Below are positions 60,479 through 64,000 of a DNA stretch of 64,000 nucleotides, one piece after another. The notes under the pieces were generated by a model, which saw only the letters and a program-made list of their open reading frames with translations, made no database searches and was not told the origin of the DNA. The stretch covers positions 701,659 through 765,658 of the forward strand of contig NZ_CP038033.1 in assembly GCF_004421105.1 (NCBI RefSeq), read 5' to 3'. Within the stretch, counting starts at the first letter, position 1. Each line of letters begins with the position of its first letter. The position numbers and the translations under genes are program-made. This DNA is from Nitrosococcus wardiae (GTDB taxonomy: Bacteria > Pseudomonadota > Gammaproteobacteria > Nitrosococcales > Nitrosococcaceae).

Positions 60479-61375
60479 ATGGGCCTTCGTTTAATGTCTT
60501 GCGGCTTCGTATTGGCAACCATCATGCTTGTAACTAGTGCCCAGGCGGTGATGGTGACCGGTGCATTTACGGGTGCTTGGTTTGATAAGGACGCCCCCGG
60601 ACAAGGATTCCTATTACAGGTCGTCGATAGGAAGGGCACCGACACCGCTATTGTTTATTGGTTCACCTTCAATGCCTTCGGTAACCAGAATTGGCTCCTA
60701 GGACAAGCACCTGTCAAAGGGGCTCAAGTCGACTTCACCATGCACTCGGTAGAAGGCGGAATCTTAGATCTCAACGGTTTTGATCCGGCTCGGATCACAT
60801 TGCAACCTTGGGGACATCTGGTCCTCCAATTCGAAGATTGCAATCACGGCACGGCCCGCTATGAAGCCCTTGACCCCCAGATCAGCGATGGCCAATTTAA
60901 AATCACTCGATTGACCAAAAGCTTGGGGGATGAATGTAGCGGTGGTCTATCCGATAATACACCACCCAGCACAGATGCCAAAATCATTCGGGTGGATTTT
61001 GACAATACCGGCGTCATTCCTCAGGCCACAGCCCGGATGAAATTTGAGCAGAACCGCAACCACGCCAAGTTTAAGATCTGGGTTAAAGATCTACCAGCGG
61101 ACCAATATGAGCTTTTAGTGGGAAATGAAATAGTCGGCGTTATCAACGCGCGCGGGCAAGGCCAGAACACACTCTTTTTCCGAAGCCCAGAAACCTGCAA
61201 TTGGGAATTACTCGATTTTGATCCTCTCAATCAGATTATCAAAATCGCCCAGGGTGACAAGGTATTCATGACCGCCTTTCTCAGTAATGATCTTGCCTCA
61301 TTTGATGATGGCGATGACAGAGACGAGGATGGTGATGGCGACAGAGATGATGGCTCCTGTGACGAGGATGGTTGA
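60479..61375 (+). CDS. Secreted protein with Asp-rich C-terminus
   Basis: A 298-residue protein with a signal peptide ending SAQA (about residue 23). The first domain (about 25-150) has the repeat-like pattern GAFTGAWFDKDAPGQGFLLQV and YWFTFNAFGNQNWLLGQ, seen in secreted proteins of unknown function. A second domain (about 165-270) follows. The last ~25 residues are mostly Asp with interspersed Gly/Arg (DDGDDRDEDGDGDRDDG), which probably binds calcium or other cations. Start ATG 60479 has AAGGAG upstream. Function unknown; a cell-surface or mineral-binding role is a guess. Confidence 0.7.
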   Translation: MGLRLMSCGFVLATIMLVTSAQAVMVTGAFTGAWFDKDAPGQGFLLQVVDRKGTDTAIVYWFTFNAFGNQNWLLGQAPVKGAQVDFTMHSVEGGILDLNGFDPARITLQPWGHLVLQFEDCNHGTARYEALDPQISDGQFKITRLTKSLGDECSGGLSDNTPPSTDAKIIRVDFDNTGVIPQATARMKFEQNRNHAKFKIWVKDLPADQYELLVGNEIVGVINARGQGQNTLFFRSPETCNWELLDFDPLNQIIKIAQGDKVFMTAFLSNDLASFDDGDDRDEDGDGDRDDGSCDEDG

Positions 61376-61554: not shown

Positions 61555-61914
61555 CTATTCTAGAGATAAAAATGCTTCCATTGGCATAACCCGCGGAAGG
61601 AGCTTTCCAGACTTACCTAAAACCATCCAGACGATCTGCTTGCTATTGTCAGGCCCAAAGCTCACATGGATGGGCTTGTCATCACCGTAGAAGTACAACC
61701 GATCAAAGGGTGTATTGGCAACTACCCATTGAGCCACTTCGAGCATACTTTCATCATCGACTATAAAATCCACGGCAGCGCCTAGTCGATTGCAAATGGG
61801 TTTCCCTCGCCGATTCAATTCGCAAGCCGCATGTTGGTCTCGCTGAGGGGAAATGCGCCCGGGGATCTTTTTCGCCAGAGCCGGTGAACAAAACCCATAG
61901 GTTAGGCGAATCAT
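61555..61914 (-). CDS. M15-peptidase-like fragment, probably N-terminally truncated
   Basis: A 119-residue frame whose similarity seems to extend upstream of its ATG (ILDPGIDYFG, 61915-61944) to an in-frame TAG at 61945-61947, so the N-terminus is probably missing. The segment CNRLGAAVDFIV resembles the HxxGxAVDF zinc motif of M15 peptidases but with Asn in place of the His, and IHVSFGP near the end is where the second metal His would be. The line DQHAACELNRRGKPI is also conserved-looking. It may be a degraded or non-catalytic domain. It lies 58 bases downstream of the HNH gene. I cannot name its family with confidence. Confidence 0.5.
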   Translation of the reverse strand: MIRLTYGFCSPALAKKIPGRISPQRDQHAACELNRRGKPICNRLGAAVDFIVDDESMLEVAQWVVANTPFDRLYFYGDDKPIHVSFGPDNSKQIVWMVLGKSGKLLPRVMPMEAFLSLE

Positions 61915-61972
61915 GCCAAAGTAATCGATGCCAGGATCCAGAATCTAAATTGTTAAGCCACAGAGTGTGAAC

Positions 61973-63067
61973 TTATGCTCTCCATCCTCTTGGGAAGCCA
62001 ATACTCTCTGCAAGCAGCATGAGGGGTGGAACAGTCGTTTCATAAGCTTGGCGTAAAATACCCAAATCCAGCACACCCTCAATGTCACTAATCCTAAGAT
62101 CCGAGATATATCCTTCCGCGAAAGCAGTCCAACTTCGCTTGGTCAGCAGAACATGCGTAGTGACTAATCCTTGGTGTTGGATATGGATCAATCGATCCAG
62201 ATACTCATCAGAGGGGATGCGATCACCTTTTGTCGAGTTCACTTCTGGAGTAACCGGCACCAAGTTCCAGAGTTGATTGTGGGCTACAAAGGACCACGGT
62301 AAAAAATGGTCTAGAGCAAAACCCCGAGAATTAAGAGGCTTGTCAGTGTAGATACAATTCAAATGCTTTGTTTCTATCACAACCCGCCAGAACTCTCTTT
62401 GTTTTCGCATATCCTGCCGCGCCGGAGGTGGTGATAGCTTGCTGGATATGGCTGGTACGTTTGGATTACGTCGCTGAAGATAGCAAAGCCACTCCCAATG
62501 CATCCAGCCCTGGATGACGCCAATGTTTGTCTTCAAGTAAGCCAACCAATCAGGATGAAATTCTATTGTCTCCTCATCACGAAAACGATACAGCGGCCGG
62601 ATTTCATCAAAATATTCTTCCGCAAGCTGTTCTATCAAGGCATTCTTTTTCGTATCTGAAACCCCCTTCAACTCCCTCTCAAAGAAAGGGGCAAGCAATC
62701 GGTAAGGTACATAGCGCAAAAGCATCCAATCAGAACCGGCGGGATTTTCCTCGCTGATGCGAGTTCGCAACTGTTCCGCGTTCTTACCCTCTTCTCTAGG
62801 GATGCGGAGTGCATCAAGAAAGCAAGAAATACGATCCTGAGAGCCGAACGAGAGCCTGAAGAAGGCGTGTGGATACCATGCGATGCGGAGCATTTCCACT
62901 CCAACTTCATTGAGCTGAATAGATGCCCTTTCGAAATTGGAAGCAATGAGAGAATGAATAGCGCCTTGGAAGAATAGGAACTTGTATGAATTGGTCGCAT
63001 CCCTGAACAGCCTACATAATGCTGAAATATCGAGATCACGTTCCGATGGTAGTAGGTGGGCACTCAT
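61973..63067 (-). CDS. HNH endonuclease-domain protein
   Basis: A 364-residue soluble protein. The C-terminal HNH nuclease motif (about 240-300) includes NCIYTDKPL, FALDHFLPWSFV (metal His), QLWNLVPV (Asn) and NSTKGDRIPS. The first ~230 residues are helical with no known motif and could be a recognition or regulatory domain. ATG 63067 overlaps the HIT gene's TGA in the sequence ATGA, which indicates coupled translation; the frame is open from 63076. Such a small-molecule/nucleotide enzyme plus nuclease pair could serve defence or nucleic-acid repair; this is inference. Confidence 0.8.
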   Translation of the reverse strand: MSAHLLPSERDLDISALCRLFRDATNSYKFLFFQGAIHSLIASNFERASIQLNEVGVEMLRIAWYPHAFFRLSFGSQDRISCFLDALRIPREEGKNAEQLRTRISEENPAGSDWMLLRYVPYRLLAPFFERELKGVSDTKKNALIEQLAEEYFDEIRPLYRFRDEETIEFHPDWLAYLKTNIGVIQGWMHWEWLCYLQRRNPNVPAISSKLSPPPARQDMRKQREFWRVVIETKHLNCIYTDKPLNSRGFALDHFLPWSFVAHNQLWNLVPVTPEVNSTKGDRIPSDEYLDRLIHIQHQGLVTTHVLLTKRSWTAFAEGYISDLRISDIEGVLDLGILRQAYETTVPPLMLLAESIGFPRGWRA

Positions 63068-63465
63068 TTCGACCAATAATCTGCTTTACCGGGAAAGATC
63101 CAACGGACCCCCCCTCGTGGATCTTTCTGGTCACCCTTATAGCGGGGAATCAGGTGCATGTGCAGATGTAGCACAGTCTGCCCCGCTGCTGCTCCATCAT
63201 TGATGCCAAGGTTGTAACCATCTGGGGCTAATTCAGTATCGAGCTTTATCTTAGCAAGCTGTAACGCCCGTTGCATATCGGCCCATTCTGACTCTGAGAG
63301 TTCAGCCAGATAAGATAGATGACGACGCGGAATAATCAGGGTATGGCCTGGTGAAACCGGATAGAGATCCCGGATGACAAGCACGTGCGTGATCTCATGG
63401 ACGATACGGATCGCCGGCAAGCTACAGAATGGACAACCTGTCTCTATTCCTTTTATTTCCACCAA
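63064..63465 (-). CDS. HIT family protein
   Basis: A 133-residue histidine-triad protein with the catalytic motif LHLHMHLIPR (HxHxHxx, about residues 99-108). The N-terminus has CPFCSLP, a possible zinc-binding CxxC. HIT proteins hydrolyse or transfer nucleotidyl groups from nucleotides such as ADP-linked compounds or dinucleoside polyphosphates. The start is TTG 63465 or GTG 63462, with no strong ribosome binding site. It overlaps the HNH gene downstream by four bases. Confidence 0.88.
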   Translation of the reverse strand: MVEIKGIETGCPFCSLPAIRIVHEITHVLVIRDLYPVSPGHTLIIPRRHLSYLAELSESEWADMQRALQLAKIKLDTELAPDGYNLGINDGAAAGQTVLHLHMHLIPRYKGDQKDPRGGVRWIFPGKADYWSK

Positions 63466-64000
63466 AGTCTACTTTAATCCAGCCATTTCTGAAAATTTCT
63501 TCAGAGTAGACATGAATTTTTTCATACTTATTTAAGAAGTCGATAAATTTTTTAAATTGTATTTATCCGATGGCCCTAATATCAATCGAGATCCAGTCTA
63601 TTTCTTACTATCCGCAGCTTTCGGAAATTCATAACTTATTTTAAGAGTCGGTGACGATATCTAGAATTAATTTGTATCTAAAAGTATTATTACGTACATA
63701 ATTTGCGACTCTTTAGTGACTAATCCACTAGGCAACCCCTCTAAGAGAGCTGCATACCCCCGCTGTTATTTTTTTAAGAAATTACCCAATCAATCTCATT
63801 GCAGTGGACTTACCTGATGCATGAACACATAGATATCAATATGCCTCCAAAAGCATACACACCTGTAAAAGACCCAAAACAAGACCTTATTTTTTGCAAG
63901 AGCCGTCGCTCATTGCCCGTAAAGTAGTCTGCAGGTGGCGAAACAACCTACCAAGTATACTAGGAATAAGATTTTATCCAGACAATAGGCAAAAAGGTTG
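63466..64000. other. AT-rich region with no recognisable gene
   Basis: About 535 bases to the window edge with no supportable reading frame or RNA gene on either strand. AT-rich around 63510-63570 and 63640-63710. It may hold the promoter of the HIT-HNH pair. Confidence 0.45.

What the first reader, a model, noticed from the sequence alone, without database searches (positions are those of the whole stretch)
61555..63465. HIT-HNH coupled pair with a truncated M15-like fragment
A HIT nucleotide hydrolase/transferase and an HNH nuclease-domain protein overlap by ATGA, so they are translated together. Behind them lies a fragment of a domain that resembles a metallopeptidase with a missing His. 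The 230-residue N-terminal part of the HNH protein has no motif I recognise. A nucleotide-processing enzyme fused in an operon with a nuclease is a plausible defence or DNA-modification module, and the flanking AT-rich DNA and truncated partner fit a mobile accessory island.
Basis: partly seen in the sequence, partly recalled or inferred. Interest (0 to 1): 0.55.

Follow-up and report, generated by a model that had tools for sequence, protein, structure and literature searches.

The report
Sulfur-DNA-linked nuclease with HIT partner
Two overlapping bacterial genes, a DNA-cutting enzyme and a small nucleotide-processing enzyme, form a recurring pair linked to defence systems that mark DNA with sulfur, and the cutter's unexplained front half looks like a possible reader of that sulfur mark.

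Summary
The HIT-HNH pair is real: the genes overlap by ATGA and both active sites are intact. The "M15-like fragment" is the last 129 codons of a DNA phosphorothioation (PT)-associated methyltransferase (TIGR04096). An intact copy (94-95% identical over the fragment) lies at the same chromosomal site in a same-genus genome, inside an SspABCD-SspE PT defence island. Here HIT-HNH occupies that site; SspC, SspD and DndC were not found in this genome.

The pairing is not chance. HIT lies directly beside this HNH in 14 of 43 loci examined, in both gene orders, with at least six changes on the HNH tree. In 8 loci HIT is fused to a TIGR04096-like methyltransferase domain. Another 12 of 43 loci carry Ssp-type genes without HIT; one has both.

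The HNH N-terminus models as a winged-helix domain that aligns end to end with the PT-reading sulfur-binding domain of Hga (Z 7.1, tied with Cdc6/ORC winged helices). It carries a Y-K...Y-P pattern resembling the known sulfur pocket. I propose a PT-sensing or PT-restricting nuclease. HIT may process its nucleotide products: human HINT1 desulfurises dGMPS. PT reading and the HIT role are inferences. I found no description of this pair in the papers searched.

The parts
63064..63465 (-). HIT family protein, 133 aa (TTG start; the next codon is GTG)
   Evidence: Pfam PF01230 5.3e-24; one of two HIT genes of this genome, while same-genus genomes G274, G275 and G276 have one each
63154..63168 (-). 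HIT active-site motif H100-L-H102-M-H104
   Evidence: A3 alignment: H104 invariant, H100 and H102 nearly invariant in 15 rows
63064..63067 (-). ATGA overlap of HIT stop and HNH start (translational coupling inferred)
   Evidence: sequence
61973..63067 (-). HNH nuclease, 364 aa
   Evidence: Pfam HNH_4 1.2e-10; AF2 model mean pLDDT 88
62420..63067 (-). N-terminal winged-helix domain, residues 1-216, sulfur-binding-domain-like
   Evidence: model mean pLDDT 90, pTM 0.88; VIA-align to 8h0l_B (SBD of Hga with PT-DNA) Z 7.1, rmsd 3.2, 116 of 146 residues; Cdc6/ORC winged helices tie (Z up to 7.8)
62981..62986 (-). Y28-K29, first candidate sulfur-pocket pair
   Evidence: invariant in 35 of 35 aligned HNH proteins
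62870..62875 (-). Y65-P66, second candidate sulfur-pocket pair
   Evidence: P66 kept in 25 of 31 rows of the main family, 0 of 4 outlying rows
62237..62311 (-). HNH catalytic core D253-H254...N277 (Cas9 D839/H840/N863 equivalents; Cas9 roles recalled)
   Evidence: alignment to the Cas9 HNH; conservation
61555..61944 (-). C-terminal remnant (129 codons) of a TIGR04096 DNA phosphorothioation-associated methyltransferase; keeps the H...D...H core of its C-terminal domain, lacks the methyltransferase domain
   Evidence: 94-95% identical to the end of L026:14188-16746; TIGR04096 7.1e-185 for the intact copy
61966..63663 (.). Segment with no match at G274's site, where G274 has a 15.7 kb Ssp island
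   Evidence: blastn: homology ends at 61965 and resumes at 63664
63466..64000 (.). AT-rich intergenic DNA upstream of HIT; 63664-63744 and 63898-63989 match G274
   Evidence: 35.9% G+C; one sigma70-like match at 63585-63556, but 6 found in the region against 5.3 in shuffles

Best explanation
The pair is a small restriction-type defence module belonging to the world of DNA phosphorothioation (PT) islands. The HNH protein uses an N-terminal winged-helix domain, resembling the DNA sulfur-binding domain, to sense PT-DNA, and a Cas9-like HNH domain to nick or cut DNA. In Ssp-bearing relatives it would be an alternative effector that reads the self mark, as SspE does. In this genome, where SspC, SspD and DndC were not found, it would restrict incoming PT-marked DNA, as ScoMcrA-type type IV enzymes do, or it is a leftover. 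The translationally coupled HIT enzyme would process nucleotide products of the cleavage or modification chemistry, most simply the nucleoside phosphorothioates left after PT-DNA breakdown. Shown: gene overlap, intact active-site residues, recurring pairing, PT-island context, remnant of a PT-associated methyltransferase. Inferred: PT sensing, direction of action, HIT substrate.
For: HIT directly adjacent in 14 of 43 HNH loci, in both gene orders; at least 6 label changes on starred branches. Ssp-type genes within the fetched flank in 13 of 43. HIT fused to a TIGR04096-like methyltransferase domain in 8 loci; TIGR04096 is the best methyltransferase model in 6 of 6 scanned, though below its cut-off. 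The same site in G274 holds SspA, B, C, D, E and TIGR04096. L084 has SspB-SspC-HNH-HIT in one run. Fold match to 8h0l_B over the whole SBD chain and, with the whole-protein model, to 7ccd_A, also an SBD. Y28-K29 and Y65-P66 resemble the pockets Y31-Q32/Y78-P79 of SprMcrA (PMC7470945, passages) and H116-R117 (lysine in most homologs)/Y164-P165 of ScoMcrA (PMC6224610, passages). HINT1 converts dGMPS to dGMP and H2S (PMC8775712, abstract and passages). SspC, SspD and DndC not found in this genome.
Against: The SBD fold match is moderate and tied with Cdc6/ORC winged helices; 7ccd_A is not among the rows, nor 8h0l_B among those, and Foldseek's listed rows (50 of 163) hold no SBD. No sequence-level match of the N-terminal profile to any SBD chain. 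Y28-K29 is also invariant in four outlying HNH proteins that lack P66, so it may be structural. P66 is lost in 6 of 31 main-family rows, five of them Bacteroidota, three of these beside a HIT-methyltransferase fusion. HIT and Ssp-type genes are almost exclusive in the sample (1 of 43 has both; Fisher p = 0.03, not corrected for kinship), so HIT is not simply a PT-island partner. On the tree the HIT label is clustered (9 changes against 13 in shuffles), so part of the recurrence is descent. L085's HIT has lost the middle His of its motif and L084's the first. 17 of 43 loci show neither HIT nor Ssp-type genes, some because contigs end.
Confidence: 0.45

Rival explanations
1. Orphan remnant: the ancestral Ssp island decayed or was replaced at this site, and HIT-HNH is cargo or leftover with no present function.
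For: Only a methyltransferase 3' end remains next to it; no SspC, SspD or DndC match in the genome; rare, the only full-length match among 274 sampled Gammaproteobacteria is this genome itself.
Against: Both ORFs are intact with conserved active-site residues and a preserved ATGA overlap. G274 lacks HNH and its one HIT gene lies about 24 kb from the island, so the pair was not simply what remained of G274's island.
Confidence: 0.25
2. Signal-controlled suicide nuclease: HIT makes or degrades a nucleotide signal that controls the HNH nuclease, as proposed for ThsC in Thoeris type II.
For: HIT matches PADLOC ThsC at 2.5e-11; the PADLOC paper proposes that ThsC makes or degrades the messenger (PMC8565338, passages); a NUDIX protein is also near HNH in L011, L012 (1.9 kb away) and L111.
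Against: No signal synthase gene (TIR, CD-NTase) was recognised beside the pair in this genome, by eye on ORF starts only; the N-terminal domain of HNH looks DNA-binding, not nucleotide-binding.
Confidence: 0.15
3. HIT is an aprataxin-like DNA deadenylase that removes AMP from DNA 5' ends or from adenylated intermediates, keeping HNH breaks from being resealed.
For: HIT-superfamily chemistry (recalled); coupling to a DNA endonuclease.
Against: The best matches in the PDB are stand-alone HIT/Hint-type proteins; none of the 43 distinct sequences matched at E <= 1e-5 is named aprataxin.
Confidence: 0.1

Closest known systems
ScoMcrA / SprMcrA / Hga sulfur-binding-domain HNH enzymes (PT-dependent type IV restriction; that Hga is such an enzyme is recalled)
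   Same: N-terminal winged-helix domain followed by HNH; Y/H-K/R...Y-P pattern; small stand-alone nuclease
   Different: No detectable sequence homology of the N-terminal domain; Cas9-like HNH_4 domain rather than the four-cysteine HNH of ScoMcrA; partner HIT gene; relatives often inside PT-modifying islands
SspABCD-SspE phosphorothioation defence system
   Same: Present at the same chromosomal site in G274; 13 of 43 HNH loci carry Ssp-type genes
   Different: SspE and DndI have DUF262 + DUF1524 (PMC11662687, passages); this HNH has neither, and SspC and SspD were not found in this genome
TIGR04096 DNA phosphorothioation-associated putative methyltransferase
   Same: The fragment is its C-terminus; its methyltransferase domain is the best match for the part fused to HIT in Bacteroidota
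   Different: Only the C-terminal 129 codons remain here
ThsC (HIT protein of Thoeris type II)
   Same: HIT domain, defence context
   Different: No ThsA/ThsB recognised beside it (by eye); partner is an HNH nuclease
Human HINT1
   Same: HIT family and histidine triad; HINT1 hydrolyses nucleoside 5'-phosphorothioates (PMC8775712)
   Different: Only distant sequence similarity (E about 1e-10); substrate here unknown

Membership tests
HIT superfamily (PF01230) | Profile match above gathering score | tested here: met
   85.1 bits against 21.5
HIT superfamily (PF01230) | H-x-H-x-H motif | tested here: met
   HLHMH at residues 100-104
HNH endonuclease (HNH_4) | Profile match and D/E-H...N catalytic residues | tested here: met
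   41.6 bits against 22; D253, H254, N277
ScoMcrA-type sulfur-binding domain (SBD) | SBD fold | tested here: inconclusive
   8h0l_B Z 7.1, 116 of 146 residues, tied with Cdc6 Z 7.8; 7ccd_A Z 5.2 with the whole-protein model only
ScoMcrA-type sulfur-binding domain (SBD) | Sequence homology to solved SBDs | tested here: not met
   No SBD chain at E <= 10 with the N-terminal profile
ScoMcrA-type sulfur-binding domain (SBD) | Sulfur pocket (H/Y, K/R/Q, Y, P at equivalent places) | tested here: inconclusive
   Y28-K29 and Y65-P66 present, but no residue-level superposition was available
ScoMcrA-type sulfur-binding domain (SBD) | HNH with zinc finger of four Cys (PMC6224610) | tested here: not met
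   The HNH domain of the window protein holds one Cys (C238), the only nearly invariant Cys of the alignment
ScoMcrA-type sulfur-binding domain (SBD) | PT-dependent binding and cleavage | not testable with these tools
   needs protein and PT-DNA
SspABCD-SspE system | SspA-D modification genes present | tested here: not met
   SspC and SspD gave no match in this genome; SspA and SspB were not searched for; all are present in G274
SspE/DndI effectors | DUF262 + DUF1524 | tested here: not met
   Only HNH_4 found in Pfam
Cas9/IscB | RuvC domain beside HNH | tested here: not met
   364 aa; the Cas9 matches cover only the HNH domain
Thoeris type II | ThsA and ThsB neighbours | tested here: inconclusive
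   ORFs beside the pair were inspected by eye, not scanned with Thoeris models
Peptidase M15 (fragment) | Family profile match | tested here: not met
   No M15 model in Pfam for the fragment or five relatives
Peptidase M15 (fragment) | Three metal ligands H, D, H | tested here: inconclusive
   H102, D123, H157 (numbers of the first row) invariant in 6 of 6 rows, with longer spacing than I recall for M15
TIGR04096 methyltransferase (fragment) | Descent from an intact member | tested here: met
   94-95% identical to the C-terminus of G274's 852-aa member

The most novel reading that the evidence does not exclude
HIT and HNH together form a self-contained 'sulfur-DNA disposal' restriction system. 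A divergent SBD-HNH nuclease finds and cuts phosphorothioated invader DNA, and the coupled HIT enzyme desulfurises the resulting nucleoside phosphorothioates (dNMPS to dNMP + H2S). The host would then both destroy and recycle DNA carrying another bacterium's self mark. It spreads in strains that lack PT modification and can occupy the very site of a PT island.
Probability: 0.13. Interest if true: 0.8.

Novelty: new variant of a known kind. Interest (0 to 1): 0.55.

Why it matters
It offers a candidate reader-nuclease family for DNA phosphorothioation that shows no detectable sequence homology to the known sulfur-binding domains. It gives a testable reason why a histidine-triad enzyme is coupled to a DNA nuclease. 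It also explains an otherwise puzzling fragment and shows two genomes of one genus using one chromosomal site for different PT-linked defence genes. If HIT enzymes act on thio-nucleotides in bacteria, this would link a very common enzyme family to sulfur-modified DNA.

Tried and rejected
M15 metallopeptidase remnant: rejected as the identity of the gene, since the intact homologue is a methyltransferase. The C-terminal domain also exists as a stand-alone protein of 201 and 186 aa in two cyanobacterial plasmids, and its H-D-H triad keeps an M15-like fold possible. Pfam and the PDB gave nothing, and PHROGs one weak endolysin match for one of the two stand-alone relatives (5.5e-4) and none for the fragment.

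Phage origin: no relative in viral contigs (34 candidate stretches, none confirmed); 1 of 50,697 phage records, a 9.7 kb unverified scaffold with a type IV restriction helicase, NUDIX, a methyltransferase and HNH. CRISPR origin: rejected, only the HNH domain resembles Cas9. SBD homology by sequence: tried with profiles A1, A4 and A5; A1 and A5 (49 matches; 60 of 78 shown) gave Cas9-type and other HNH proteins, A4 two unrelated chance hits. A protein from L110 tried as a bridge to solved SBDs matched none. A Pfam accession I recalled for the SBD is not in the library. Foldseek listed no SBD for the N-terminal model among the 50 rows shown of 163, nor for the whole protein among 50 of 246. The shuffled control for the methyltransferase match gave at most 9.9 bits (2000 shuffles, 901 reported) against 46.6 and 53.8.

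Literature: searches (listings only, 20 or fewer rows each) and passages of PMC10853773 (also abstract and outline), PMC12839542, PMC8565338, PMC6224610, PMC7470945, PMC11662687 and PMC8569181; I saw no description of this HIT-HNH pair. Most subscription papers are not in that library, and supplementary files were not searched.

Counting rules: the 43 loci are the 13, 15 of 18 plasmid records (three Synechocystis plasmids with the same place and scores as H8 left out), the one phage record, 13 of the 15 stretches (two were places already held) and the window's own. Five hold only part of the HNH gene (L009, L014, L035, L088, L094) and several end at contig or record edges (for example L013, L105, L107), so absences are uncertain. 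Of the 13 'Ssp' loci, L009 and L108 show only a cysteine desulfurase (SspA-like) and L003 only SspC among Ssp genes. Weak SspE-like matches in L087 (3e-5) and L094 (2e-12) were not counted, nor the HIT gene 1.7 kb away on the other strand in L004. The five partial genes were left out of the tree. In a narrower set of 15 HNH genomes that I chose for the HIT scan, 12 have HIT beside HNH; that set leaves out nine genomes without HIT beside HNH (G310-G315, G317, G318 and others), so I use 14 of 43 instead. L099, L101, L103 and L104 (HIT beside other HNH subfamilies) are not in the 43. They came from the six best of 82 plasmid records matched by HIT; 4 of these 6 have an HNH neighbour, L100 and L102 do not.
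Full report
OBSERVATION. On the minus strand HIT (63465..63064) ends in TGA inside the ATGA that starts HNH (63067..61973), giving 133 and 364 residues. HIT scores 85 bits against Pfam HIT (cut-off 21.5) and HNH 41.6 bits against HNH_4 (cut-off 22). The HIT motif is HLHMH. The HNH core D253-H254...N277 aligns to the Cas9 HNH; H and N are kept in 35 of 35 aligned proteins and D in 33, with E in the other two. G+C is 47% in HNH, 50% in HIT, 36% upstream of HIT and 51% in the window.

THE FRAGMENT. The 119-residue ORF matched a second genome of the same genus (G274) at 95% identity inside an 862-codon open frame. That frame encodes an 852-aa protein matching TIGR04096, DNA phosphorothioation-associated putative methyltransferase, at 7.1e-185, best stretch residues 181-672. 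The fragment is its last 129 codons, beyond that stretch. In two cyanobacterial plasmids the same C-terminal domain stands alone (201 and 186 aa), near a cysteine desulfurase in one and a TIGR04096-named gene in the other. No profile confirmed M15.

THE SITE. In G274 the genes on one flank are the same (the 298-aa gene, the TetR-type regulator and an efflux gene; the last two names by eye). Beside them lies a 15.7 kb stretch with SspA (6.6e-130), SspB (2e-108), SspC (E 0), SspD (1.7e-137), SspE (8.5e-301), a RadD-like helicase, a MzaB-like ATPase and the methyltransferase. DNA homology to G274 stops at window 61965, seven bases short of the HNH stop codon, and resumes at 63664. So 1.7 kb carrying HNH and HIT sits where G274 has the island. 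G274 has no HNH match and one HIT gene, about 24 kb away, where this genome has two. SspC, SspD and DndC gave no match in this genome at E <= 0.001. The two Ssp queries come from G274, so they match there by origin; the DndC model rang below its cut-off in 5 of 14 control genomes. SspA and SspB were not searched for.

DISTRIBUTION. The HNH family is rare and patchy. Six of 274 sampled gammaproteobacterial genomes matched, but only this genome in full; one other (G083) has a partial match (residues 62-155) and four match only the HNH domain. Among 39 relatives, this genome and one HNH-domain-only match were found. The family matched 11 of 395 genomes in the phylum of G319, 2 of 399 in the order of G320, 18 plasmid records, 1 phage record and no confirmed viral contig. 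The two larger samples contain the genome they were centred on.

NEIGHBOURS. I compared 43 loci including the window (make-up under Tried and rejected). HIT is the immediate same-strand neighbour in 14 of 43 (gaps -42 to +107 bp). HIT precedes HNH in the window, L008 and L012, and follows it in the other 11. Ssp-type genes lie in the fetched flank in 13 of 43, three of these on a single gene (L003, L009, L108). Only L084 has both, as SspB-SspC-HNH-HIT (PADLOC SspB 1.4e-104, SspC 1.2e-225 over the first 663 of 1039 positions). In eight Bacteroidota loci HIT is fused behind a methyltransferase domain. Of six scanned, all six have TIGR04096 as the best methyltransferase model (1.5e-10 to 5.8e-20), below its cut-off of 150 bits. 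L011 and L111 add a type IV restriction helicase (PADLOC mREase_IV; SauUSI-like from recall) and a NUDIX protein. On a 42-row HNH tree, with four outlying HNH proteins in and the five partial genes out, the label 'HIT beside it' needs 9 changes, at least 6 forced by starred branches. So the pairing arose or was lost several times, though the label is also clustered (13 changes in shuffles, 6-7 of 500 as low). Some rows have long branches and their places are unsure. From the HIT side, four of the six best plasmid HIT matches also have an HNH neighbour, but from other HNH subfamilies.

CHANCE. HIT genes number 1-4 per genome in 18 genomes. With at most 0.0028 chance per genome that one lies beside a given gene (0.9 genes per kb assumed), 43 loci would give about 0.1; 14 were seen. 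HIT and Ssp-type genes tend to exclude each other (1 with both, 13 HIT only, 12 Ssp only, 17 neither; Fisher p = 0.03, kinship not corrected).

STRUCTURE. AlphaFold2 on 12 own-locus sequences gave mean pLDDT 88 for the whole HNH protein and 90 for residues 1-216 alone. The C-terminal part matches Cas9 HNH domains (Z up to 6.8). The N-terminal part alone matches Cdc6 of Pyrobaculum (Z 7.8, 112 aligned), the sulfur-binding domain of Hga with PT-DNA (8h0l_B, Z 7.1, rmsd 3.2, 116 of 146 residues, chain 1-146) and ORC winged helices (Z about 6). The whole-protein model picked another SBD, 7ccd_A of SprMcrA (Z 5.2, rmsd 4.4, 129 of 169); each SBD appears in only one of the two lists. These Z values are in the range the tool calls common. 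A winged helix is well supported; SBD identity is not proven. No SBD was among Foldseek's listed rows for the N-terminal model, and none appeared by sequence.

POCKET. In SprMcrA the sulfur pocket is Y31, Q32, Y78, P79 and A82 (PMC7470945, passages). In ScoMcrA it is H116, R117 (lysine in most homologs), Y164, P165 and A168 (PMC6224610, passages). Here Y28-K29 begins one helix and Y65-P66 lies in the next long helix. Y28-K29 is invariant in 35 of 35 rows. P66 holds in 25 of 31 main-family rows and in 0 of 4 outlying rows. The spacing is 37 residues against 47. This is a pattern match, not a superposition.

MECHANISM. The best reading is a PT-sensing nuclease. In Ssp hosts it may act like SspE or DndI, which read PT through a hydrophobic cavity and attack DNA (PMC11662687, passages). 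In hosts without Ssp, as this one appears to be, it may act like ScoMcrA on incoming PT-DNA. HIT most plausibly handles thio-nucleotides or adenylated products: HINT1 turns dGMPS into dGMP and H2S (PMC8775712, abstract and passages), and breakdown of PT-DNA could feed such substrates to it. That last step is my inference and nothing here tests it.

VERDICT. It is a new variant of PT-linked restriction modules, with an unproven reader domain and an unproven role for HIT.

Noticed in passing
window 66655-66731 (L015:13314-13390, beyond the window end): A tRNA-Pro gene lies about 3 kb from the HIT-HNH pair, beyond DUF2235-like and EVE-like genes (names by eye); the site may be a tRNA-linked hotspot.
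   Followed up: no
window 60479-61375: A 298-aa secreted-looking protein with an acidic D/E-rich tail, conserved in G274; no Pfam or NCBIfam match.
   Followed up: partly
L015:12243-12510 and L015:13072-13249 (window 65584-65851 and 66413-66590, beyond the window end): These two stretches match many places in G274 (47 matches in all for the 6.7 kb query, most to these two), so dispersed repeats lie near this island.
   Followed up: no
L113:2454-3059 and L114:243-803: The C-terminal domain of TIGR04096 proteins occurs as a stand-alone small protein with an invariant H...D...H triad on two cyanobacterial plasmids; no Pfam family names it.
   Followed up: partly
L002, L003, L005, L031, L105: The cyanobacterial HNH ORFs extend about 80-95 residues upstream into an HTH-like segment (by eye), while L027 has a separate helix-turn-helix gene just before HNH; autoregulation is possible.
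   Followed up: no
L111:1876-7116: An unverified faecal phage scaffold carries a type IV restriction helicase, NUDIX, a Mad2-like methyltransferase and this HNH in a row.
   Followed up: partly
L110:3221-6519: An Acinetobacter plasmid carries a protein with a DGGHR motif and HNH (by eye), a methyltransferase and a divergent HNH of this wider group, the last two overlapping.
   Followed up: partly
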